Shown in pieces: positions 2,636 to 59,483 of a stretch of DNA of 64,000 nt. The stretch comes from Blastococcus sp. CT_GayMR19. Lineage in GTDB: Bacteria > Actinomycetota > Actinomycetes > Mycobacteriales > Geodermatophilaceae. The DNA lies in NCBI RefSeq assembly GCF_004570385.1, contig NZ_SPQL01000002.1, forward strand, positions 62,001-126,000. The letters run 5' to 3'. Numbering within the stretch: position 1 is the first letter of the stretch; each line of letters begins with the position of its first letter. The position numbers were made by a program, and so were the translations under genes. A model generated the notes under the pieces. The model was given only the letters and a program-made list of their open reading frames with translations, ran no database searches and was not told the origin of the DNA.

Positions 2636-3181
2636 ATGCCGCTGCTCACCGTCGGTCACGGCCCCGAGGACCGCGTCCGCCTCGGGGCGCGCCTGACCGC
2701 GGCGGGAGTCACGTCCCTGGTCGACGTCCGCCGTTTCCCGGGCAGCCGCAGCAACCCCGACGTCGCTCGCGACGCCCTCGCGGCCTGGCTGCCCGAGCTC
2801 GGCGTCAGCTACCGCTGGGAGGAGCGGCTCGGCGGCCGGCGACGCCTGCCGCCCGGCGGGCCCGTCGCCGACGGCTGGTGGACGGTGGCGCAGTTCGCCG
2901 CGTACGCCGCGCACACCCGGACGCCCGAGTTCAGCGCCGCCCTCGACGACGTGCTCGGCGAGGCGGGGCGCAGCACCGTGGCGGTGATGTGCAGCGAGAG
3001 CGTGTGGTGGCGCTGTCACCGCCGGCTGATCGCCGACGTGGCCGTCCTGGGGCGCGGCGTCCCGGTGGCGCACCTCATGCCCGACGGCCGGCTTCCCGGG
3101 CACCGCCCGTCGGAGGGCGCGGTGCTCGACGACGACGGAGCGGTCCGCTGGCCGGCGCAGGAACTACGGTCCGGGGCATGA
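2636..3181 (+). CDS. DUF488 family protein
   Basis: A 181-residue DUF488 protein, function unknown. The family hallmarks are present: an N-terminal LLTVGHG, then VDVRRFPGSRSNP, and the Cys-containing block CSESVWWRCHRRLIADV (CxExxxxxCHR). The ATG at 2636 follows an AGG-containing stretch (GGCAGGAACGC); an alternative in-frame GTG lies at 2600. The stop codon overlaps the ATG of the gluconokinase gene (ATGA at 3178-3181), so the two are probably translated as a coupled pair, though no functional link is known. The conserved Cys residues suggest redox or metal chemistry, which is inference only. Confidence 0.85.
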   Translation: MPLLTVGHGPEDRVRLGARLTAAGVTSLVDVRRFPGSRSNPDVARDALAAWLPELGVSYRWEERLGGRRRLPPGGPVADGWWTVAQFAAYAAHTRTPEFSAALDDVLGEAGRSTVAVMCSESVWWRCHRRLIADVAVLGRGVPVAHLMPDGRLPGHRPSEGAVLDDDGAVRWPAQELRSGA

Positions 3182-3687
3182 CCCGCCCCACCGCCGTCGT
3201 CGTCATGGGGGTGTCGGGGTCCGGGAAGACCACGGTCGCCGTCGAGCTCGCCCGCCGGACGGGCTGGGAGTTCGCCGAGGGCGACGACCACCACCCGGCC
3301 GCCAACGTCGAGAAGATGCGCGCCGGGATCCCGCTCGACGACGCCGACCGCGAGCCCTGGCTGCGGACCCTCGCCGGATGGATCGCCGAGCGCGAGCAGG
3401 CCGGCGCCTCGTGCGTGCTGACCTGCTCGGCGCTCAAGCGCAGCTACCGCGACCTGCTCCGGGAGGGCAACGGGTCGGTGTTCTTCGCCTACGTCGCCGT
3501 CCCGGAGGCCGTGCTGTCCGAGCGCCTCGCCGCGCGGAAGGGCCACTACATGCCGCCGTCCCTGCTGGGCAGCCAGCTGGCCGCGCTCCAACCCCTGGGG
3601 GACGACGAACCGGGCATCACCGTCCCGGGCACCGGGGAGCCCGGCGAGGTGGTCGACGGGATCGTCGCCGCCCTCCCGAACCGTTGA
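3178..3687 (+). CDS. gntK: Gluconokinase
   Basis: Phosphorylates D-gluconate to 6-phosphogluconate with ATP, feeding the pentose-phosphate or Entner-Doudoroff route in the cytoplasm. The 169-residue length fits the GntK family. The P-loop GVSGSGKTT starts near residue 11. The family block EFAEGDDHHPAANVEKMRAG, the LTCSALKRSYRDLLR motif and the HYMPPSLLGSQ motif are all present. It overlaps the DUF488 gene by 4 nt. Its stop codon (TGA at 3685-3687) lies inside the left arm of a 72-bp inverted-repeat element that fills the gap before the convergent pruA gene. Confidence 0.93.
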   Translation: MTRPTAVVVMGVSGSGKTTVAVELARRTGWEFAEGDDHHPAANVEKMRAGIPLDDADREPWLRTLAGWIAEREQAGASCVLTCSALKRSYRDLLREGNGSVFFAYVAVPEAVLSERLAARKGHYMPPSLLGSQLAALQPLGDDEPGITVPGTGEPGEVVDGIVAALPNR

Positions 3688-3754
3688 TCATCGGGTTGTT
3701 GCCGCCGACACGGCCGGACACGCCGCGGGGAGCGGGAACGAGCCGATGATCGAC
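3683..3754. repeat. 72-bp palindromic repeat element, copy A
   Basis: One of three dispersed copies of a 72-bp element (others at 41706-41777 and 57780-57851). The terminal arms are GTTGATCATCGG and CCGATGATCGAC, 12 bp with one non-Watson-Crick position, which would be a U-G wobble in a plus-strand RNA. By hand count it shares 60 of 72 positions with copy B. It includes the gntK stop codon and ends 11 bp before the pruA stop codon. It may serve as a 3'-end hairpin or terminator, or be a REP/MITE-like element; no transposase is nearby. Confidence 0.85.
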
Positions 3755-3765
3755 TGCGGGAGGCG

Positions 3766-5391
<1,626 letters not shown>

Positions 5392-11092: not shown

Positions 11093-12967
11093 ATGAAGAA
11101 CAGCCTCGCGGGGGTCTCCTCCGCGTCCACGCCCGGATACGGGGTGACCTGGGGCGGACCGCCTCGGGCAGCCGGCCGGGCACTCACCGTCTTCGCCGCG
11201 GCGGCAGTCGTCGCCGGCATGGCGGGACCGGCGGCTGCCGCTGCCGCGCCGGCCTCCTCGGCCGACTCGGTGTCGGTCATCGTCCGCGAGACCCCGGGGT
11301 CCGGCAACGGCCCCGAGCGGGCCGTCGTGGCCCTGGGCGGCACCGTCGAGCAGCAGCTCGGCATCATCGGCGGCTTCGAGGCGACCCTCCCGGCCGACCG
11401 CCTGGGCGTCCTGCGCTACGCGCCGGGTGTCCTCGAGGTCGTCGAGAACGCCTCGGTGACGCTCACCAGCACCGAGGTCGACAACCAGGTCGGGCTCAAC
11501 GGTTCGCTGCAGCGGGTCACGCACGAGATGACCGGCGCCGCCTCCATGTGGGACGCCGGCTTCACCGGCGCCGGCGTGGACGTCGCGCTGATCGACTCGG
11601 GTGTCGTCACGGTCGACGGTCTGGCGACCGCCGGCAAGGTCGTGCACGGCCCGGACATGTCGTTCGAGGGTGTCGCCTGCGACAGCTCGGGCTGCAAGGC
11701 GAGCCCCGTCGCGACGCTGGACACCTACGGGCACGGCACGCACCTGGCGGGCATCATCGCCGGGCGCGACAGTGCAGCTCCCGGCACCGTGAACAGCGCG
11801 TCGTCGGGCGACTTCGTCGGCATCGCGCCGGACGCCCGGGTCGTCAGCATCAAGGTCGCTGACGCCGAGGGCCGTACCGACGTCTCGCAGGCGATCGCCG
11901 CGATCGAGTGGGTGATCCAGAACAAGAACGCCAACGGGCTGAACATCCGCGTGCTGAACATGTCGTTCGGCACCGACGGTGTCCAGCGCTACCAGCTGGA
12001 CCCGCTGGCGTTCGCCGCCGAGCAGGCGTGGCACCAGGGCATCGTGGTCGTCGTGGCCGCCGGCAACACCGGCTACGGCAGCGCGAAGCTCAACAACCCC
12101 GCCTACGACCCGTACGTGATCGCCGTCGGCGGTTCCGACGGCGTGGGCACGGCGACGACGGACGACGACATCGTCCCGTCCTGGTCGACCAGTGGTGACG
12201 GCACGCGCAACCCCGACGTCGTCGCCCCGGGCCAGTCCGTGGTCAGCCTGCGGGTGCCGAACTCGCACCTGGACGCGGCCTACCCGGGTGCCCGTACCGG
12301 GGAGCGGTTCTTCCGCGGCAGCGGCACGTCGCAGTCCGCGGCGGTCGTCTCCGGCGCTGCGGCCCTGCTCCTCGAGCAGCGGCCGGAGCTCACCCCGGAC
12401 CAGGTCAAGGCGCTGCTGATGGGTTCCGCGCGTTCGCTGCCGAACGCCGACGCCCGCGCCCAGGGCAGCGGTCTGATCGACATGGTGGCGGCCAGTGCCG
12501 CAGCCACGCCGACCGCCGTGCAGACCTGGGAGCGGTCGACCGGTGCCGGTTCGCTGGACAAGTCGCGCGGTACCGCGATCGTCAAGCACAACGGCAAGGA
12601 GCTCCGCGGCGAGACCGACTTCACCGGCAACAAGTGGGACGCCGCGAAGTTCAGCAAGAAGTTCGCCAAGGCGCTCGACAAGGCTGCCGCCGGGAAGGGC
12701 CCGCTCAAGAACGTGGACCTGAACGGCCTGTCCTGGAACGGCCTGAGCTGGAACGGGCTCTCCTGGAACGGCCTGAGCTGGAACGGGCTCTCCTGGAACG
12801 GCCTGTCCTGGAACGGCCTGAGCTGGAACGGGCTCTCCTGGAACGGACTGTCCTGGAACGGCCTGAGCTGGAACGGGCTCTCCTGGAACGGCCTGAGCTG
12901 GAACGGACTGTCCTGGAACGGCCTGAGCTGGAACGGGCTGTCCTGGAACGGTCTGGCGTGGGGCTGA
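11093..12967 (+). CDS. Secreted S8 (subtilisin-like) serine protease with NGLSW-repeat tail
   Basis: An exported subtilase of 624 residues. The signal peptide has a hydrophobic core (ALTVFAAAAVVAGMAG) and ends near AAAAAPASS. A propeptide-like region follows, then the S8 catalytic domain with Asp168 (VALIDSG), His214 (YGHGTHLAG), the oxyanion Asn in VVAAGNTG and Ser413 (GSGTSQSAA). After a basic linker (KFSKKFAKALDKAAAGKG) the protein ends in 15 NGLSW units, one NGLAW and a final Gly. The start is set at ATG 11093 rather than GTG 11081, because an AGG lies 5 nt before it and MKN begins a normal signal peptide. The GGDEF-EAL gene starts 4 bp after the stop. The tail may anchor or assemble the enzyme at the cell surface; its role is unknown. 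Confidence 0.93.
   Translation: MKNSLAGVSSASTPGYGVTWGGPPRAAGRALTVFAAAAVVAGMAGPAAAAAAPASSADSVSVIVRETPGSGNGPERAVVALGGTVEQQLGIIGGFEATLPADRLGVLRYAPGVLEVVENASVTLTSTEVDNQVGLNGSLQRVTHEMTGAASMWDAGFTGAGVDVALIDSGVVTVDGLATAGKVVHGPDMSFEGVACDSSGCKASPVATLDTYGHGTHLAGIIAGRDSAAPGTVNSASSGDFVGIAPDARVVSIKVADAEGRTDVSQAIAAIEWVIQNKNANGLNIRVLNMSFGTDGVQRYQLDPLAFAAEQAWHQGIVVVVAAGNTGYGSAKLNNPAYDPYVIAVGGSDGVGTATTDDDIVPSWSTSGDGTRNPDVVAPGQSVVSLRVPNSHLDAAYPGARTGERFFRGSGTSQSAAVVSGAAALLLEQRPELTPDQVKALLMGSARSLPNADARAQGSGLIDMVAASAAATPTAVQTWERSTGAGSLDKSRGTAIVKHNGKELRGETDFTGNKWDAAKFSKKFAKALDKAAAGKGPLKNVDLNGLSWNGLSWNGLSWNGLSWNGLSWNGLSWNGLSWNGLSWNGLSWNGLSWNGLSWNGLSWNGLSWNGLSWNGLSWNGLAWG
12722..12964 (+). repeat. 15-nt tandem repeat encoding the NGLSW tail
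   Basis: Sixteen in-frame units of 15 nt (plus a terminal Gly codon) encode 15 NGLSW and one NGLAW. Asn and Trp codons are constant (AAC, TGG). The Ser codon alternates between TCC and AGC and the Leu codon between CTG and CTC, giving an irregular two-unit (30-nt) pattern. TCC and AGC cannot interconvert by one silent change, so the array probably grew by duplicating a mixed unit while the peptide was held constant. Confidence 0.95.
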
Positions 12968-12971
12968 TCCC

Positions 12972-15587
12972 ATGACGACGACGATGACGGACGGCGGCGC
13001 TGCCGCCCCCCGGCGCTTCTCTCTGGGCGTGCCCCAGAAGATCGCGCTGCTCACGGGGGGGATCGCCGCGACTGCGGTGACCCTGTTCGTCATCGTCGTC
13101 GCGCCGCTTCCCGCGGCGCCCACGGCCCTGAACCTGCCGTGGGTGCTGTGGGCGGTGGCCTTCGCGGCCAGCGAAGTGCTGATCGTGCACGTGCAGTGGA
13201 AGCGCGAGTCGCACACCTTCTCGCTCAGCGACCTCGTCCTGGCCGCCGGCCTCGCGCTCGCCCTCCCGTGGCACCTCGTGCTGGCGCAGCTGGCCGGGAC
13301 CACGCTGATCCTGGTCTTCTACCGCCGCCAGCGGGGCCTGAAGCTGGCCTTCAACACCGTGCAGTTCGCGCTGTCCGCCACCATGGCGGTGCTCACGTTC
13401 TCGGCCGTCAGCTCGGTGCTGGGCCAGCAGTGGGCCTTCGCCGGACAGCTGCTGGCCATCGCCGTCGCCACCATGACGGCCTCGGCCGCCATCTTCGCCG
13501 TCATGACCCTCTCGACGGGGCATGCCGACATGCAGCCCCTGATCGGGATGCTCGGCTTCTCCCTGCCGTTCACCGTCGGCGCCGGCGCCGTCGGCGTGGT
13601 GATCGCCCGCACCTCCGCGGACGACCCGGCGGCCCTCGTGCTGCTGATGATCCCGACCCTCCTGATCATCGCGGCCTACCGCGCCTACACACGGGCCCGC
13701 GAGCAGCAGGAGAACCTCAAGCTGCTGCACGAGGTCACCTCGCTGCTGCACGGCGGCGACGTCGAGGCCGCCCTCGGGGACTTCCTCTCCTCCGCCCGCA
13801 CCGCCTTCCACGCCGAGGTGGCCGAACTGGTGCTGGTCAGCAGCGCCGGCACCGGTGGGATGACCGTCAGCCGGAGCCAGGAGGGCGACGACCCGGTCGT
13901 CATGTCGCCGGCCGTGGACGACCTCGAGCGGCAGCGGCTGCTGCGCCTGGCGACGACGCAGGGCTCGCTGATCACCCGCGCCGGCGGCGGCCGTGGCGGT
14001 CTGCTCGACGGCTACGCCGCCGAGCGCGGCGTGAAGGACGCCATGGTCGCCGCGCTGCGCACGGAGGACCGGGTGCACGGCGTGCTGCTGGTCGCCGGCC
14101 GGATGGGGGCGGGTACCACCTTCAACGGCAGCGACCTAGCCCTGCTCGAGACCTTCGGCCGGCACGTGGCCACCTCGCTCGAGCGCGGCCGGCTCGAGGA
14201 GACGCTGCGCCAGGTCACCGACCTCAAGGAGCAGCTCCGCCACCAGACGCTGCACGACGCGCTGACCGGGCTGCCCAACCGCACCCTGTTCCTCGACCGC
14301 GCCCGCCAGGCGGTCGAGGTGGCGGCGCGGACGCACGCCTGGCCCGCCGTCCTCTACCTGGACCTCGACGGCTTCAAGCCGGTCAACGACGAGTACGGCC
14401 ACGACGTCGGCGACGCCGTGCTGCGCACCATCGCCATCCGGCTGCGCGGCTGCCTGCGCCCGGCCGACACCGCGGCCCGGCTCGGGGGTGACGAGTTCGC
14501 CGTCCTGCTCGGTGGCCCGCTCGACCAGCAGGGGATCACCCGCGTCGTCGACCGGATCCAGGCGCAGTTCGACGTCCCCGTGGACCTCGGCAACGGCCAT
14601 GTCGCCAAGATCGGCGCCAGCATCGGCATCGCCGTCGGCAGCTTCGACACCGAGAACGCCGACAAGCTCATCCGGCAGTCCGACATCGCCATGTACTCCG
14701 CCAAGCGCAGCGGCGGCGGCGCGAGCTACTACGAGCCGGGCATGGGTGACCCCACGTCCGCGCGCGAGGAGCAGATCGCCACCCTCAACCGTGCGATCCG
14801 CGAGGGCGAGCTCTTCACGGTCTACCAGCCGCTGATCAACCTGCGCACCGGCCGGCCCACCGGCGCCGAGGCCCTGGTGCGCTGGCAGCACCCGGACGAC
14901 GGTGTCGTCGGTCCCGACGCGTTCATCGGGCTCGCCGAGGAGACCGGTCTGATCGTCGAGATCGGCACCCAGGTGCTCCGCGAGGCCTGCCGTCAGGCGG
15001 CCCGCTGGGCCGAGGCCGACCCGAGCCAGCCCCTCACCATCACGGTCAACCTCTCGGCGCGGCAGCTGTCCGACCCCGCCATCGTCGGCACGGTCACCGA
15101 GGCGCTGGCCGACGCCGGGCTCGATGCGAAGCGCCTGGTCCTGGAGATCACCGAGACGGTCCTCATGCAGGACCGCGAGGCGGCGGCCGCCACCCTCTGG
15201 CAGCTCAAGGCTCTCGGCATCCGCATCGCCATCGACGACTTCGGCACCGGCTACTCCTCGCTGGCCTACCTGCGCCGGTTCCCGATCGACATGCTCAAGA
15301 TCGCCCGTGAGTTCGTCGACGGCCTCGGCCGCGACGAGCACGACGACGTGATCACGCGCGCGATCGTGGAGCTGGCCAGCACGCTGGGCCTGCTGACCGT
15401 CGCGGAGGGCATCGAGACCCACGACCAGCAGACCATCGTCACGGCGCTGGGCTGCGACCTCGGCCAGGGCTACCTGTTCTCGGTGCCGGTCGACGCCGAG
15501 GCCGCGTTCGCCGTGCTGACCGCCACCCCGCTGGCGGTTCCGCAGCCCCGTCCGGGCGAGGGCCCGCGGCTGTACAGCGTCGGCTGA
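12972..15587 (+). CDS. Membrane-bound diguanylate cyclase/phosphodiesterase (GGDEF-EAL)
   Basis: Makes and/or degrades cyclic di-GMP at the membrane. The 871-residue protein has about seven or eight N-terminal helices (residues 20-225), a GAF-like region (about 255-410), a GGDEF domain with intact GGDEF at 505-509 and an RPAD sequence at the inhibitory RxxD position (496-499), and an EAL domain with EAL at 633-635 and DDFGTGYSS from Asp755. Both catalytic domains look intact, so the net activity cannot be predicted. It begins 4 bp after the subtilase stop and is almost certainly co-transcribed with it, which suggests c-di-GMP signalling linked to a surface or secreted function. Confidence 0.95.
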   Translation: MTTTMTDGGAAAPRRFSLGVPQKIALLTGGIAATAVTLFVIVVAPLPAAPTALNLPWVLWAVAFAASEVLIVHVQWKRESHTFSLSDLVLAAGLALALPWHLVLAQLAGTTLILVFYRRQRGLKLAFNTVQFALSATMAVLTFSAVSSVLGQQWAFAGQLLAIAVATMTASAAIFAVMTLSTGHADMQPLIGMLGFSLPFTVGAGAVGVVIARTSADDPAALVLLMIPTLLIIAAYRAYTRAREQQENLKLLHEVTSLLHGGDVEAALGDFLSSARTAFHAEVAELVLVSSAGTGGMTVSRSQEGDDPVVMSPAVDDLERQRLLRLATTQGSLITRAGGGRGGLLDGYAAERGVKDAMVAALRTEDRVHGVLLVAGRMGAGTTFNGSDLALLETFGRHVATSLERGRLEETLRQVTDLKEQLRHQTLHDALTGLPNRTLFLDRARQAVEVAARTHAWPAVLYLDLDGFKPVNDEYGHDVGDAVLRTIAIRLRGCLRPADTAARLGGDEFAVLLGGPLDQQGITRVVDRIQAQFDVPVDLGNGHVAKIGASIGIAVGSFDTENADKLIRQSDIAMYSAKRSGGGASYYEPGMGDPTSAREEQIATLNRAIREGELFTVYQPLINLRTGRPTGAEALVRWQHPDDGVVGPDAFIGLAEETGLIVEIGTQVLREACRQAARWAEADPSQPLTITVNLSARQLSDPAIVGTVTEALADAGLDAKRLVLEITETVLMQDREAAAATLWQLKALGIRIAIDDFGTGYSSLAYLRRFPIDMLKIAREFVDGLGRDEHDDVITRAIVELASTLGLLTVAEGIETHDQQTIVTALGCDLGQGYLFSVPVDAEAAFAVLTATPLAVPQPRPGEGPRLYSVG

Positions 15588-29816: not shown

Positions 29817-31697
<1,881 letters not shown>

Positions 31698-41705: not shown

Positions 41706-41777
41706 GTTGATCATCGAGTTGTTGCCGCCGACACGACGCAACACGCCGCGGTGGGCGGCCACAACCCGATGATCAAC
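41706..41777. repeat. 72-bp palindromic repeat element, copy B
   Basis: Second copy of the 72-bp element, in the gap between cysM and murI, 24 bp beyond the cysM stop. The arms are GTTGATCATCGA and CCGATGATCAAC, with one mismatch at the inner end; in the minus-strand (cysM) transcript that position is a G-U pair. The interior shares an 18-nt block starting GTTGTTGCCGCC with copy A. Confidence 0.85.
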
Positions 41778-41801: not shown

Positions 41802-43050
<1,249 letters not shown>

Positions 43051-54388: not shown

Positions 54389-56293
54389 TCAGACAGCGAC
54401 GCCCTTGTCGCGCAGCCACGGCAGCGGGTCGATCTTCTGACCGTCGATACCGCCGACATGCACCTCGAAGTGCAGGTGCGGACCCGTCGACTGACCGCGG
54501 TTGCCGAGCAGGGCGATGGTGTCTCCGGCCCGGACGACCTGGCCGGCCTGGACCAGGATCTCGTCCATGTGGCCGTAGACGGTCACGTCGCCGTTCTCGT
54601 GCTGGATGTAGACGACCAGCCCGTAGCCGCTGGCCGGGCCCGCCTCGAGGACGACCCCGTCCATCGCGGCGTACTCGGGGGTGTGCATCGGAGCGGCCAG
54701 GTCGATGCCGGCGTGCAGGGTGCCCCAGCGGGCACCGAAGCCGCTCGTCAGACGGGCGCCGTTCACGGGCAGGACGGCCTTGGGCCGGGCCGCCTCGGCG
54801 GCCGCTGCGGCGGCGACACGGTCGGCCTCGGCCTGCACCTGCGCGGCGGCGGCCTGCTCGGCGTCCCGGATGTTGCGGCTGGCGGCGAGTTCGCCCAGGC
54901 GCTCCGTGACGTCGGCGTCGACGACGGCAGCGGTCGGGTCGGCGGCGATGCCGAGCTGCTCCGCGACGCTCACGGGCTGGCTCATGGTCGCGGTCGCGGT
55001 CGCCTGCGCCGTGGGCTCCTCGGCGGAGAAGGTGCCGAGGCTGACCGCGGCCACGATCGCGGCCGTCACGTACACGGCGGGGCGACGGCGGGCCGGCCGC
55101 TCCCGGCGACGCAGGAAGACCGGCAGCCGGCTCTCCGTGCCTCCGGGCGTCTGCTCGGGGGCGGCCGGGAGGTCCTTGCGGACGACGACGACCTCCGCGG
55201 CCTCGGGGGTCCCGAGGGCGGCGACGTCGGTGAGCGGAACCAGCCCGGACAGGGCGCTCCCGGGGGCAGCGACACGCTTGTGCGGAGTGGGACGCACGCG
55301 GGCCGTTCCGGGGGCGACCTCGCCGGCCGACGTCGACGTGGCCCGCGACGAGGTGGCATCCAGGGCCGTGGCGGCGGGGGCCGTGACGGCGGGGGCCGTG
55401 ACGGCCGGAGCCTTCGTCACGGACGCCTTGGCGACGGCGGCCTTCGCGACCGGAGCCTTCGCAGCGGACGTCTCGGTGACCGGAGCCGTGGCGACAGTGG
55501 CCTTCGCGGCTGCAGCCTTCGCGGCCGGAGCCTTCGCGGCCGGAGCCGTCGCGACGACCGCCTTCGCCACCGGAGCGGACTTCGCAGCAGGCTCGGCCGA
55601 AAGGGCCTTCGCAGCGGCAGGCACGACGACGGGGGTGGTCGCGGCCGTCCTGGCCGGGGCGCTCGTGACCGGGGCCGTCTTGGTGGTGGCCCTCGCGGCA
55701 GGCGCCGGCTTCGCGGCCGGAGCGGCCTTGGCGGCAGGGGTCGTCGCGTCGGCCGGAACGCCGGCGGCCGGCTTCGGTGCGGTCTTCGCCGTGGCGGGCT
55801 TGCGGGTCGCGGCACCCTTCGCGGACGCGGCGGCCGCCGCCCGGGCACTGCGCACCCCGGGGGTGTGGTTGGCGACGGTCGTGACGGCCGCGGCCCGAGC
55901 GGCGGTCGCGGCCTTGGCCGTCGCGGCCTTCGCCGTCGCCGCCTTGGCCGTGGCCACCTTGACGGTCGCGGCCTTCGCCGTCGCCGCCTTGGCCGTCGCG
56001 GCCTTGACCGTGGCGGCCTTGGCGCGGGAGGCGAGGGTGCCGCTGAGAGCCGCTGCCCTGGCGCCCGTCGCGCGCCTCGCACGCGGGGCGGCCGGAGCGT
56101 CAGTGGTGATCTGGATGGTCCCGGTGCCCTGCGCCGTCCCCTGGCGCTGCGTCGGAACCTTGCTGGTGGCCTTCTCCTCGGTCGAACCGGCGGCTCGGCG
56201 AGACGTTCCGCGAGCGGTCGGGAGGGTCGTGCGGGCCCCGGTGGCGGGTCCCGAGCCCTCGAGGTGAAGGCGGTCCTGGTGGAGCGAACTCAT
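54389..56293 (-). CDS. M23 (LytM-type) peptidoglycan peptidase with Lys/Ala-repeat N-terminus
   Basis: A 634-residue protein. Residues 1-400 are low-complexity Ala/Lys/Thr/Pro, including eight KAATA-type pentapeptides at 92-130, resembling histone-H1-like tails. A membrane helix (VYVTAAIVAAVSLGTFS) follows near residue 430, then a coiled Ala-rich linker and an M23 domain from about 515 with HAGIDLAAPMHTPEYA, VTVYGHMDEIL and GPHLHFEVHVGG (zinc His/Asp and catalytic His). The N-terminus would be cytoplasmic and the peptidase outside. The ATG at 56293 follows a GGAAG/AGGTG region. The role is probably wall hydrolysis; the long basic region is unusual. Confidence 0.88.
   Translation of the reverse strand: MSSLHQDRLHLEGSGPATGARTTLPTARGTSRRAAGSTEEKATSKVPTQRQGTAQGTGTIQITTDAPAAPRARRATGARAAALSGTLASRAKAATVKAATAKAATAKAATVKVATAKAATAKAATAKAATAARAAAVTTVANHTPGVRSARAAAAASAKGAATRKPATAKTAPKPAAGVPADATTPAAKAAPAAKPAPAARATTKTAPVTSAPARTAATTPVVVPAAAKALSAEPAAKSAPVAKAVVATAPAAKAPAAKAAAAKATVATAPVTETSAAKAPVAKAAVAKASVTKAPAVTAPAVTAPAATALDATSSRATSTSAGEVAPGTARVRPTPHKRVAAPGSALSGLVPLTDVAALGTPEAAEVVVVRKDLPAAPEQTPGGTESRLPVFLRRRERPARRRPAVYVTAAIVAAVSLGTFSAEEPTAQATATATMSQPVSVAEQLGIAADPTAAVVDADVTERLGELAASRNIRDAEQAAAAQVQAEADRVAAAAAAEAARPKAVLPVNGARLTSGFGARWGTLHAGIDLAAPMHTPEYAAMDGVVLEAGPASGYGLVVYIQHENGDVTVYGHMDEILVQAGQVVRAGDTIALLGNRGQSTGPHLHFEVHVGGIDGQKIDPLPWLRDKGVAV
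55901..56020 (-). repeat. 15-nt tandem repeat encoding KAATA pentapeptides
   Basis: Eight in-frame 15-nt units encode KAAT[A/V] (one KVATA) at residues 92-131 of the M23 protein. Further Lys/Ala/Pro units of looser periodicity continue downstream in the same frame. The array resembles the Lys/Ala tails of bacterial histone-H1-like proteins. Confidence 0.85.
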
Positions 56294-56581: not shown

Positions 56582-57763
56582 ATGCGCGCAGTCACCTGGC
56601 ACGGGCGAGCGGACGTACGGGTGGACACCGTCCCCGACCCGGTTCTGCAGGAGCCGACCGACGTCGTCATCGAGGTGACGTCGAGCGGCATCTGCGGCTC
56701 GGACCTCCACCTCATCGAGGTCATGGCACCGTTCATGTCGGTGGGCGACGTGATGGGTCACGAGCCGATGGGGATCGTCCGGGAGGTCGGCTCCGACGTC
56801 ACCGCGGTGAAGGCCGGGGACCGGGTGGTCGTCCCCTTCAACATCTCGTGCGGGACCTGCTGGATGTGTTCCCAGGGCCTGCAGTCCCAGTGCGAGACCA
56901 CCCAGAACCGGGAGCAGGGCTTCGGTGCCTCGCTGTTCGGCTACACCAAGCTCTACGGGCAGGTGCCGGGCGGGCAGGCCGAGTACCTGCGCGTGCCGTT
57001 CGGCAACACCCTGCCGATCAAGGTGCCCGACGGGCTTCCGGACGACCGGTTCGTCTACCTGTCCGACGTGCTGCCCACCGCGTGGCAGGCGGTGCAGTAC
57101 GCCGGTGTCCCGCAGGCGAAGAGCGTCCTGGTCCTGGGGCTGGGCCCCATCGGTGACATGGCCGCCCGGATCGCCCAGCACCTGGGTGTGGAGCAGGTCT
57201 TCGGCGCGGACGTCGTCCCCGAGCGCCTCGCGCGCGCCCGCGCGCGGGGAGTCACGGTGATCGACTCGACGAAGCAGGACGACGTCGTCTCGGCGGTCCG
57301 GGACGCCACCGGCGGGCGGGGACCGGACGCCGTCATCGACGCCGTCGGCATGGAGGCGCACGGCTCGCCGCTCGCCTCGTTCGCGCAGAAGGCCACGGCC
57401 GTCGTGCCGGACGCGATCATGGAGAAGGTCATGCAGGTGGCCGGCGTCGACCGGCTGGCGGCCCTCAACACCGCGATCGAGGCGGTCCGGCGGGGCGGCA
57501 CGATCTCGCTGTCGGGTGTCTACGGCGGCGCGACCGACCCCATGCCCCTGATGCGGATGTTCGACAAGCAGATCCAGCTGCGGATGGGGCAGGCCAACGT
57601 CTGGCGCTGGGTGCCCGACATCCTGCCGCTGCTGCTCGAGGGTGACCCGCTCGGTGTCGACGACTTCGCCACCCACCGGGTTCCGCTGGAGGAGGCGCCG
57701 GAGGCCTACATGAACTTCCGCGAGAAGAAGGAGGGCACCGTCAAGGTGCTGCTCCAGCCCTGA
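56582..57763 (+). CDS. Zinc-dependent alcohol dehydrogenase
   Basis: A 393-residue medium-chain dehydrogenase resembling glutathione-independent formaldehyde dehydrogenase-like ADHs. VTSSGICGSDLHLIEV gives the catalytic Cys, VMGHEPMGIV the His, and SCGTCWMCSQGLQSQC a structural-zinc-like Cys cluster. VLVLGLGPIGDMAARIA is the NAD-binding motif. The ATG at 56582 follows GAGGGAG. The substrate is unknown. A 72-bp repeat element lies just after its stop. Confidence 0.93.
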   Translation: MRAVTWHGRADVRVDTVPDPVLQEPTDVVIEVTSSGICGSDLHLIEVMAPFMSVGDVMGHEPMGIVREVGSDVTAVKAGDRVVVPFNISCGTCWMCSQGLQSQCETTQNREQGFGASLFGYTKLYGQVPGGQAEYLRVPFGNTLPIKVPDGLPDDRFVYLSDVLPTAWQAVQYAGVPQAKSVLVLGLGPIGDMAARIAQHLGVEQVFGADVVPERLARARARGVTVIDSTKQDDVVSAVRDATGGRGPDAVIDAVGMEAHGSPLASFAQKATAVVPDAIMEKVMQVAGVDRLAALNTAIEAVRRGGTISLSGVYGGATDPMPLMRMFDKQIQLRMGQANVWRWVPDILPLLLEGDPLGVDDFATHRVPLEEAPEAYMNFREKKEGTVKVLLQP

Positions 57764-57779: not shown

Positions 57780-57851
57780 GTTGGTCATCGTCTGCGTGCA
57801 CGCGACACGGTCGGACGCGCCGGGGCGGCGTCCACGTATCCGATGATCAAC
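57780..57851. repeat. 72-bp palindromic repeat element, copy C
   Basis: Third copy of the 72-bp element, 16 bp after the ADH stop and 12 bp from the ABC-F stop. The arms are GTTGGTCATCGT and CCGATGATCAAC. The interior has diverged most but keeps GCGACACGG and CGGAC. The arm difference at position 5 is a G-U wobble in plus-strand RNA; the inner end is mismatched. Confidence 0.75.
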
Positions 57852-57863
57852 CGGGCCGCGGCC

Positions 57864-59483
57864 TCAGCGAGCGCGGGCGACCCGGGTCTCGTCGAACACC
57901 GGCTCGGCCGACTCGTACACGCGCCCGTCGGCGCCGAAGACGAGGAAGCGGTCGAAGGAGCGCGCGAACCAGCGGTCGTGGGTGACCGCCATGACCGTCC
58001 CCTCGAAGGCCGTCAGCGCCTCCTCGAGAGCCTCGGCCGACAGGACGTCGAGGTTGTCCGTCGGCTCGTCGAGCAGCAGCAGGGTCGCGCCGGACAGCTC
58101 CAGCAGCAGGATCTGGAAGCGCGCCTGCTGCCCGCCCGACAGCGTGCGGAACATCTGGTCGCCGGAGTCGGCCAGCCCGTAGCGGCGCAGGGCGGCCATC
58201 GCCCGGCCGCGGTCGACGCCCGGACGGCCGGGTTCGCCGTGCCAGAGCAGGTCGACGAGGGTCCGGTCCTGCCACTCGGGATGGGCGTGGGTCTGGGCGA
58301 AGAACCCGGGGACGACACGGGCGCCGAGGCGCCACTCCCCCGTGTGCGCGACCTCCTGGCCGGCGAGCAGCCGCAGGAAGTGCGACTTGCCCGCGCCGTT
58401 CGCGCCCAGCACGCCGACCCGGTCGCCGTACCAGATCTCGGCGTCGAACGGCTTCATCAGCCCCGACAGCTCGAGCTGCTCGGCCATGACCGCGCGCACA
58501 CCGGTGCGGCCCCCGCGCAGCCGCATCGCGACCTTCTGCTCCGGCGGCCGCTCCGGCGGCGGCCCGGCCGCCTCGAACTTGGCCAGCCGGGTCTGCATCG
58601 CGTGGTAGCGGTTGGCCATGTCCGGCGAGTTCGCCGCCTGCTGCTGGAGGGTGCGCACGAGGTCGACCAGCCGCTGGTGCTCCTCGTCCCAGCGGCGGCG
58701 GAGCTCGGCCAGCCGCTCGTGCCGCGCCGTCCGTGCCTCGTGGTAGCTGACGAAGCCGCCGCCGTGCACCCACGCCGTCCCGCCCTCGACGGTGACCACG
58801 CGGTCGGCGACGCGGGCGAGCAGTTCCCGGTCGTGGCTGACGAACAGCACCGTCTTGCGCGTCTCCAGCAGCCGCTCCTCGAGCCAGCGCTTGCCGGGGA
58901 CGTCGAGGTAGTTGTCCGGCTCGTCGAGCAGCAGCACCTGGTCGGGGCCGCGCAGCAGCGCCTCGAGCGCCAGGCGTTTCTGCTCCCCGCCCGACAGCGT
59001 GGACAGCTCCCGGTACTTGCACCGGTCGTAGGGGACGCCGAGCGCGGCCACGGTCACCGTGTCCCAGGTGACCTCCGCGTCGTAGCCGCCGACGTCGCCC
59101 CAGTGCGAGAGCGCATGGGCGTACGTCATCTGCCCGCGCTCGTCGTCGGTCTCCATGAGCGCGAGCTCGGCGGCCTCCAGGGCGTCCCAGGCCTCGCGGA
59201 CGGCGGGCGGCGAGAGGTCGACGAGCAGGCGCTGGACCGTGGTGTCGTCGCGGACCGAGCCGATGAACTGACGCATGACGCCGAGGCCGCCGGTGCGGGC
59301 GACCGAGCCGGCCTCGGGCACCAGGTCGGCGGCGATGATCCGCAGGAGCGTGGTCTTGCCGGCGCCGTTCTCACCGACCAGGGCCGCGCGGGCGCCGTCA
59401 CCGATCCGGAACGAGACGTCGGCCAGCAGCACCCGCCCGTCCGGGAGGGTGTGCCGCACTCCGGTCACGTCGATGTAGCCCAC
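57864..59483 (-). CDS. ABC-F family ATP-binding protein
   Basis: A 539-residue soluble protein with two ABC ATPase domains and no membrane part, typical of ABC-F ribosome-associated factors. Walker A loops are GENGAGKTT and GANGAGKS; the signatures are LSGGEQKRLALEALL and LSGGQQARFQILLLE; Walker B are VLLLDEPDNYLD and LLLLDEPTDNLD. The inter-domain linker is helical and charged. The role may be translation regulation or antibiotic protection. The start is GTG 59483, preceded by GGGAGG. Confidence 0.92.
   Translation of the reverse strand: MGYIDVTGVRHTLPDGRVLLADVSFRIGDGARAALVGENGAGKTTLLRIIAADLVPEAGSVARTGGLGVMRQFIGSVRDDTTVQRLLVDLSPPAVREAWDALEAAELALMETDDERGQMTYAHALSHWGDVGGYDAEVTWDTVTVAALGVPYDRCKYRELSTLSGGEQKRLALEALLRGPDQVLLLDEPDNYLDVPGKRWLEERLLETRKTVLFVSHDRELLARVADRVVTVEGGTAWVHGGGFVSYHEARTARHERLAELRRRWDEEHQRLVDLVRTLQQQAANSPDMANRYHAMQTRLAKFEAAGPPPERPPEQKVAMRLRGGRTGVRAVMAEQLELSGLMKPFDAEIWYGDRVGVLGANGAGKSHFLRLLAGQEVAHTGEWRLGARVVPGFFAQTHAHPEWQDRTLVDLLWHGEPGRPGVDRGRAMAALRRYGLADSGDQMFRTLSGGQQARFQILLLELSGATLLLLDEPTDNLDVLSAEALEEALTAFEGTVMAVTHDRWFARSFDRFLVFGADGRVYESAEPVFDETRVARAR

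What the first reader, a model, noticed from the sequence alone, without database searches (positions are those of the whole stretch)
3683..3754. A family of exactly 72-bp palindromic elements at gene 3' ends, with arm differences that favour RNA pairing on the sense strand
Three copies (3683-3754, 41706-41777, 57780-57851) are each exactly 72 bp from outer arm to outer arm. Consensus arms are GTTGATCATCGG and CCGATGATCAAC. By hand alignment A and B share 60 of 72 positions; C is more diverged. In copy A the arm difference is a U-G pair only in the plus-strand RNA (gntK transcript); in B it is a G-U pair only in the minus-strand RNA (cysM transcript); in C one of two differences is G-U in the plus-strand RNA (ADH transcript). 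The pairing bias toward the strand of the preceding gene suggests a functional 3'-UTR hairpin rather than a dead repeat. Copy A even contains the gntK stop codon. I know of no named family matching it.
Basis: partly seen in the sequence, partly recalled or inferred. Interest (0 to 1): 0.82.

Follow-up and report, generated by a model that had tools for sequence, protein, structure and literature searches.

The report
Gene-end hairpins matching a flanked nuclease gene
The 72-bp palindromes are dispersed copies of hairpins that also bracket a nuclease-like gene of the same genome; other versions of this gene carry hairpins of their own that are likewise spread around their genomes, which looks like a previously undescribed kind of miniature mobile DNA.

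Summary
The three 72-bp palindromes are real and sit at gene 3' ends. They belong to a Geodermatophilaceae family, 24 places in this genome, with quantised lengths (63, 72, 82 bp). The proposed sense-strand RNA pairing bias is not significant. The larger finding lies outside the window. The same hairpin stands on both sides of one gene, coding for an AbiEi-like DNA-binding region joined to a DUF559 (PD-(D/E)XK-like) nuclease region. Many homologs are bracketed by hairpins of another sequence. Five searches with such hairpins found dispersed copies in genomes where they bracket a homolog and none in most others, with exceptions. One was a second paralog of this genome (98 sites). Of 80 homolog loci, 39 have matching hairpin sequence on both sides, against 9 of 400 control genes, six of them the nuclease itself. 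Hairpin length class follows the nuclease clade rather than the genus. At some orthologous gene ends different hairpin dialects occupy the same site. I read this as a REPIN/RAYT-like system with an unrelated enzyme. The association is well supported; mobilisation by the enzyme is inferred. Nine searches of open-access papers showed me no description of it.

The parts
3683..3754 (+). Element A, 72-bp hairpin, GATCATCG family; left arm holds the gntK stop codon TGA (3685-3687)
41706..41777 (+). Element B, 72-bp hairpin, GATCATCG family, 24 nt after the end of the cysM-like gene on the minus strand
57780..57851 (+). Element C, 72-bp hairpin, GATCATCG family, more diverged; between convergent genes
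3178..3687 (+). gntK-like gene; its 3' end overlaps element A by 5 nt
3766..5391 (-). pruA-like gene (delta-1-pyrroline-5-carboxylate dehydrogenase), convergent; 3' end 11 nt from element A
   Evidence: name read by eye from the translation
41802..42752 (-). cysM-like gene upstream of element B on the minus strand
56621..57763 (+). alcohol-dehydrogenase-like gene, 3' end 16 nt before element C
57864..59483 (-). ABC-F-like ATPase gene, convergent, 3' end 12 nt after element C
   Evidence: name read by eye from the translation

Best explanation
The 72-bp palindromes are dispersed, non-autonomous copies of the hairpins that bracket one gene of the same genome (G000:C36:127391-128263, outside the window). 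That gene codes for a protein with an N-terminal AbiEi-type DNA-binding region and a C-terminal DUF559/PD-(D/E)XK-like nuclease region. SHOWN by sequence: matching hairpins around the gene; other hairpins around other homologs; dispersed copies of the same hairpin in genomes that carry such a gene; covarying stems; gene 3'-end position; hairpin class following the nuclease clade; different hairpin dialects at the same orthologous gene ends. INFERRED: the AbiEi region recognises the arms, the nuclease region cuts at or beside a hairpin or a native terminator, and repair or replication copies a cognate hairpin into the site. This would spread the family and rewrite older sites to the current dialect. 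Gene 3' ends are where such an insert is targeted or tolerated, and the hairpin may then serve as a bidirectional 3'-end structure. It works like REPIN/RAYT but with an unrelated enzyme.
For: (1) Elements flank the gene on both sides in own and related genomes. (2) Hairpin on one side with matching sequence on the other: 39 of 80 homolog loci against 9 of 400 control genes, six of those nine being the nuclease (Fisher p = 2e-26); a hairpin on each side, matching or not: 30 of 80 against 28 of 400. (3) Matrices over 41 genomes: AAGGCACT only in G017, 6 places, 2 of them flanking its nuclease; GAGCAGTT in 7 genomes, one a coding chance hit, next to a nuclease in G002, G003, G009, G017, G021; GATCATGG flanking nucleases in G018 and G002; GGTACC type 98 sites in G000 and 44 in G010, flanking a paralog in both, the GGTACAG variant standing both in the G010 flanks and in nearly all listed G010 sites; AGATCTGC flanking paralogs in G002 and G003. 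Reversed control patterns gave 0 in every listed row. (4) GATCATCG matches: mean 11.8 in 13 family genomes with a GATCATCG hairpin beside the nuclease, 2.25 in 12 others (p = 3e-5; grouping mine). (5) Nuclease clade I: a 63-bp hairpin beside 12 of 13 (one about 73 bp); clade II: 72 or 82 bp in 6 of 6 GATCATCG rows plus one AAGGCACT row; both clades hold the window's genus and Geodermatophilus. (6) Putative catalytic residues 97-100% conserved in 77 homologs. (7) Different dialects at the same orthologous sites. (8) AbiEi-family antitoxins bind inverted repeats (abstract of PMC7319586); the model matches AbiEi 6y8q, E 2.5e-5.
Against: No movement, cutting or binding was observed; no target-site duplication beyond shuffle. 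41 of 80 homologs fall below the threshold, and 14 of 20 outside the family. Genomes with copies but no cognate flanked gene found: GATCATCG in G013, G014, G022; AGATCTGC in G010, G011, G014 (G016's 10 places were not listed). Own genome has five 63-bp copies beside a 72-type nuclease. G002's nuclease has one hairpin of each of two dialects. GAGCAGTT rows are not one clade of the nuclease tree: 5 rows need 3 changes, as low in 15 of 500 shuffles. The C-terminal model is poor (pLDDT blocks 36-53 over residues 231-290), and DUF559 scores below Pfam's cut-off in the three proteins. Within clades vertical descent can explain part of the match.
Confidence: 0.72

Rival explanations
1. Gene-end terminators or 3'-UTR RNA hairpins whose sequence is kept for transcription termination or mRNA stability; the nuclease locus simply has terminators too.
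For: Position at gene 3' ends, strong folding, covariation, orientation bias of the 63-bp class.
Against: Hairpins lie on both sides of the nuclease gene and match each other; paralogs have other sequences with dispersed sets of their own. No T-tract (0 of 55); G-U bias not significant. A terminator needs no genome-specific arm.
Confidence: 0.12
2. Operators or structural sites of a domesticated AbiEi-type regulator: the protein binds dispersed hairpins for regulation, genome organisation or defence, and does not move them.
For: AbiEi antitoxins bind inverted repeats and autoregulate (abstract, PMC7319586); persistence at orthologous sites; similar gene neighbourhood of several nuclease loci.
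Against: Sites sit at 3' ends, not promoters; presence and absence at an orthologous site; units in arrays at 34-bp period in the GGTACC system look like copying; putative nuclease residues 97-100% conserved.
Confidence: 0.25
3. True REP/REPIN elements moved by a RAYT (Y1 transposase), or MITEs of an ordinary insertion sequence; the nuclease is a passenger.
For: Palindromic, extragenic, doublets in the GGTACC system, associated enzyme gene, compensatory changes, as described for REPINs (passages of PMC3116915).
Against: GTAG near an end in 1 of 111; no target duplication; the gene repeatedly found between matching elements is the AbiEi/DUF559 gene (three other genes between matching elements in the control set were not identified). 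A Y1 gene was not searched for genome-wide.
Confidence: 0.05

Closest known systems
REPINs and RAYTs (REP-associated tyrosine transposases)
   Same: Short extragenic hairpin elements with conserved ends, fixed spacing and compensatory stem changes; an enzyme gene beside its cognate repeats; in one genome three enzyme genes, each next to its own repeat class (passages of PMC3116915).
   Different: Enzyme is AbiEi + DUF559-like, not a Y1/HUH transposase; no GTAG foot (1 of 111); here in actinobacteria; different dialects found at the same orthologous gene ends.
AbiEi antitoxins / Rv2827c-like DNA-binding proteins
   Same: N-terminal region matches AbiEi profiles (PADLOC E 2e-15) and structures 6y8q and 1zel; the known proteins bind inverted repeats (abstract).
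   Different: Joined to a nuclease-like region; bracketed by hairpins that occur dispersed in the genome. No AbiEii toxin gene was looked for.
DUF559 / MTES_1575 / Vsr-like PD-(D/E)XK nucleases
   Same: C-terminal match to DUF559 in 11 of 11 scanned members (best E 6e-6) and a conserved E-R..Q..D..E-x-x-G-x-x-H..D..R pattern (its reading as PD-(D/E)XK is recalled).
   Different: Not seen described, in the paper searches made, as partner of dispersed hairpins; fold not confirmed with confidence here.
CGTC-tagged REPs without known enzyme
   Same: Palindromic repeats that 'apparently lack a dedicated transposase' (abstract passage of PMC3733652).
   Different: Found in five other phyla; the words Actinobacteria, Frankia and Streptomyces do not occur in that text. 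CGTC lies near an end in 25 of 111 here, not tested against chance.

Membership tests
REPIN/RAYT | Extragenic palindromic elements with conserved ends and covarying hairpin | tested here: met
   (end conservation partly fixed by the search pattern)
REPIN/RAYT | GTAG tetranucleotide at the REP end | tested here: not met
   1 of 111 elements
REPIN/RAYT | Associated enzyme is a Y1 (HUH) tyrosine transposase | tested here: not met
   bracketed gene is AbiEi + DUF559-like; other genes genome-wide not searched for Y1
REPIN/RAYT | Enzyme gene flanked by its own repeat class | tested here: met
   39 of 80 loci
REPIN/RAYT | Excision or transposition seen in populations | not testable with these tools
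   needs read data
Intrinsic (rho-independent) terminators | Hairpin followed by a T-tract on the sense strand | tested here: not met
   0 of 55 tandem elements with 5 or more T in the next 12 nt
Intrinsic (rho-independent) terminators | Position just after stop codons | tested here: met
   96 of 106 within 30 nt
Functional sense-strand RNA hairpin | G-U preferred over A-C on the transcribed strand | tested here: inconclusive
   72 against 52 cells, p = 0.088
MITE of a DDE insertion sequence | Target-site duplications | tested here: not met
   k = 2: 12 observed, 8.4 shuffled; k = 3: 2 and 2.2; k = 4: 0 and 0.55
AbiEi family | AbiEi N-terminal DNA-binding fold | tested here: met
   2e-15; 6y8q E 2.5e-5; Pfam AbiEi_1 below its cut-off
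DUF559/PD-(D/E)XK nuclease | Pfam gathering score | tested here: inconclusive
   16.2-19.9 bits against 20.6 in three members; 11 of 11 members at E <= 0.01
DUF559/PD-(D/E)XK nuclease | Conserved acidic catalytic pattern | tested here: met
   D220 100%, E231 97%, G234 100% of 77 homologs
DUF559/PD-(D/E)XK nuclease | PD-(D/E)XK fold | tested here: inconclusive
   pLDDT blocks 36-53 over residues 231-290; best restriction-nuclease match PvuRts1I E 0.16

The most novel reading that the evidence does not exclude
A previously unknown class of self-spreading DNA in actinobacteria: an AbiEi-nuclease protein recognises its own hairpin, copies it to gene 3' ends, and rewrites hairpins left there by rival paralogs, so that sets of orthologous gene ends change 'dialect' together. 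It would be a convergent counterpart of REPIN/RAYT with no transposase.
Probability: 0.45. Interest if true: 0.95.

Novelty: categorically new. Interest (0 to 1): 0.87.

Why it matters
The enzyme partner described for short palindromic repeats in the papers I saw is the RAYT. This finding offers a second, unrelated candidate enzyme, in a phylum for which my nine paper searches showed no enzyme-linked repeat family. It comes with many natural gene/hairpin pairs, several per genome, so specificity is directly testable. It would give a role to an uncharacterised protein family (AbiEi + DUF559), and it supplies orthologous sites where one hairpin dialect stands in place of another.

Tried and rejected
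Plain RNA-element reading: folded both strands, RNAalifold, G-U against A-C test: bias not significant. Flank pairing beyond the arms (noticed in copy B): in the 63-bp class above shuffles only at the first flanking pair; in the 72-bp class the 12-nt flanks pair better than in all 100 shuffles, the 8-nt flanks do not; left unexplained. Rfam at gathering threshold: only a tRNA in the window. Target-site duplication, T-tract and GTAG foot: absent.

Papers: nine searches gave no description: DUF559 with palindromic/actinobacteria, REPIN/RAYT, Vsr with mobile-element terms, DUF559 + AbiEi, 0 papers, REP in Frankia/Streptomyces, REP/DUF559/Vsr-like/REPIN, Geodermatophilaceae repeats, AbiEi with inverted repeats, 7 papers, hairpin/nuclease/REP-like/RAYT from 2018, 0 papers. 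The library is open-access PMC only, and beyond the listings I saw only passages of PMC3116915 and PMC3733652 and the outline with abstract of PMC7319586.

Orthologous-site test at gntK/pruA: a first script (25 loci) turned some loci the wrong way round; one search repeats it with orientation checked on all 30 loci returned. gntK lies next to pruA in 4 of 30.

Rows dropped before counts: loci L101, L122, L149, L158, L204 of the 115 (one match each; other taxa, coding-like). The 80 homolog loci are 82 chosen of 140 matches, less L217 (contig edge) and L285 (two homologs); L230 and L328 are the same gene. The 20 were chosen from the matches. A working note wrongly said seven of nine control hits were the nuclease; it is six (note).

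Full report
OBSERVATION. The three palindromes are present as described and beyond chance. Window = G000:C26:62001-126000 of a 4.57-Mb, 42-contig genome.

FAMILY. A covariance model from 16 own copies finds 24 distinct places at E < 1e-3 in the own genome (the 16 match by construction): 17 of about 72 bp, 5 of 63 bp, 2 not inspected. Lengths are quantised: 63 bp (83 matches), 72 bp (26), 82 bp (1 here, and the rule among the listed non-coding matches of genome G008). By eye they differ in the number of GACACG units of about 10 bp before a constant right half. Arms and GACACGCCG are conserved by construction of the pattern; the stem between them was free and covaries (63-bp class: pairs 12-52, 15-49, 16-48, 17-47 with z of 3.4-4.6 above shuffled partners).

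POSITION. Of 115 elements, 48 lie between convergent genes, 57 tandem, 5 divergent, 5 at contig edges, against 14.8, 65.0 and 30.2 expected of 110 by intergenic length. Genes were called by my own codon-usage caller, which agrees with the ORFs around the three copies. After removing duplicates, 96 of 106 lie within 30 nt of a stop codon, and 37 of 151 flanking 3' ends fall exactly on the TGA of the arm. The 63-bp class is oriented against the upstream gene in 33 of 39 tandem cases; the 72-bp class is not oriented.

THE PARTNER GENE. Elements that shared neighbour genes revealed pairs of elements about 1 kb apart around one gene. In the own genome and in L098, L117 and L145 an aldo/keto-reductase-like gene lies on one side; an AspS-like gene lies on the other side in the own genome and L117, further out in L145, and was not seen in L098 (names by eye). 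The own copy is G000:C36:127391-128263, 291 aa. It matches AbiEi profiles in the N-terminal half (PADLOC 2e-15) and DUF559 in the C-terminal half (11 of 11 orthologs, best 6e-6; below Pfam's cut-off in the three proteins). The AlphaFold model (mean pLDDT 66.6, C-terminal end low) matches AbiEi 6y8q and Rv2827c 1zel. In 77 homologs E187, R191, D220 and G234 are invariant and E231 97%. That it is an active nuclease is inferred. With the Geodermatophilaceae profile 13 of 149 phylum-wide genomes have a match at 1e-15.

OTHER GENES, OTHER HAIRPINS. Around orthologs in related genomes the hairpins differ: GATCATCG at 63, 72 or 82 bp, GAGCAGTT, GATCATGG, AAGGCACT, CTGCTGAG and others. Sixty further homologs, most about 30% identical, were fetched, and many again have one hairpin sequence on both sides. 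Quantified as a hairpin on one side with matching sequence on the other: 39 of 80 homolog loci (79 distinct genes) against 9 of 400 control genes; six of the nine controls are the nuclease, three are other genes. Of 20 homologs chosen outside the family, 6.

PREDICTION TESTS. If hairpin and gene are cognate, a hairpin seen beside a gene should be dispersed in that genome and rare elsewhere. Over 41 genomes: AAGGCACT 6 places, all in G017, two flanking its nuclease. GAGCAGTT in G002, G003, G009, G011, G017, G021 and one coding chance hit (G025), beside a nuclease in five of the six; in G002 and G021 the only copies are those beside the nuclease; the G011 nuclease carries this arm with mismatches. 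GATCATGG in 15 genomes, a mixture of loop types with some coding hits, flanking nucleases in G018 and, with another loop, a 30%-identical paralog in G002. The own genome's paralog at C26:350534-351316 is flanked by GCTTTCGGTACCGAAAGC; that motif (up to 1 mismatch) has 98 sites in G000, 44 in G010, 2 in G008, 1 in G009, none in 37 others; in the loci read, units often lie 34 bp apart, and G010's paralog and nearly all listed G010 sites share the variant GGTACAG. AGATCTGC has matches in 12 genomes: 10 in G002 and 24 in G003, flanking a paralog in both; beside one in G004, G009 and G015; but also 9, 11 and 4 copies in G010, G011 and G014 with none adjacent, and 10 in G016 whose places were not listed. 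Reversed control patterns gave none in the listed rows.

CO-EVOLUTION. GATCATCG matches average 11.8 in 13 family genomes with a GATCATCG hairpin beside the nuclease and 2.25 in 12 without (counts include coding hits). In the nuclease tree clade I (13 rows, support 100/99) goes with an adjacent 63-bp hairpin in 12 of 13; clade II (7 rows, 96/82) with 72 or 82 bp in its 6 GATCATCG rows and holds the AAGGCACT row. Geodermatophilus species and the window's own genus fall in both clades, so the class follows the gene, not the genus (classes). Eight labels need 7 changes, the minimum; shuffled mean 10.7. The GAGCAGTT rows, however, do not form one clade.

SAME SITE, DIFFERENT DIALECT. Elements with both neighbour genes homologous include GATCATCG against GAGCAGTT at three dispersed sites, and 63 against 72 bp. 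At the pruA 3' end G000 has the 72-bp element, G021 the 63-bp one, G002 a GATCATGG hairpin and G003 an AGATCTGC hairpin. Only in G000, G007, G018 and G021 is gntK the neighbour: two have the element, two do not. Either gene ends are repeatedly invaded, or resident hairpins are rewritten.

MECHANISM AND LIMITS. AbiEi antitoxins bind inverted repeats (abstract, PMC7319586), so recognition of the arms by the N-terminal region is likely. Cutting and copying are inferred. REPIN papers describe the same ecology with Y1 transposases (passages of PMC3116915; of PMC3733652). Against membership: no GTAG foot and a non-Y1 enzyme. Results against my reading are listed in the Against line.

Noticed in passing
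G000 whole genome, e.g. G000:C3:117295-117380, C26:350422 and 351481: A second hairpin system of the same genome: GCTTTCGGTACCGAAAGC, 98 sites, units often 34 bp apart, flanking another AbiEi/DUF559 paralog; none in the window itself (0 matches with up to 3 mismatches).
   Followed up: partly
window 30060-30700: Long 9-bp-period repeat, read by eye as a collagen-like Gly-X-Y coding repeat.
   Followed up: no
window 12676-13005 and 55345-56035: 15-bp-period repeat arrays, perhaps coding repeats.
   Followed up: no
G031 (family f8), loci L317, L319, L320, L326: One genome with 11 AbiEi/DUF559 homologs, several bracketed by different hairpins.
   Followed up: partly
63-bp elements in tandem contexts: Loop motif GACACGCCG lies antisense to the upstream gene in 33 of 39 cases; the 72-bp class shows no such bias. 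Unexplained.
   Followed up: partly
L162:691-1176 and L183:3625-4140 (Modestobacter): A gene other than the nuclease lying between two similar elements.
   Followed up: no
72-bp class, 12-nt flanks: Flanks outside the arms pair better with their own partner than in all 100 shuffles, not so in the 63-bp class.
   Followed up: no
L357 (G008), L360 (G014), L366 (G010), first 110 nt after pruA: Further palindromic units (GATCAGG-type pairs) at the pruA 3' end, perhaps yet another hairpin family.
   Followed up: no
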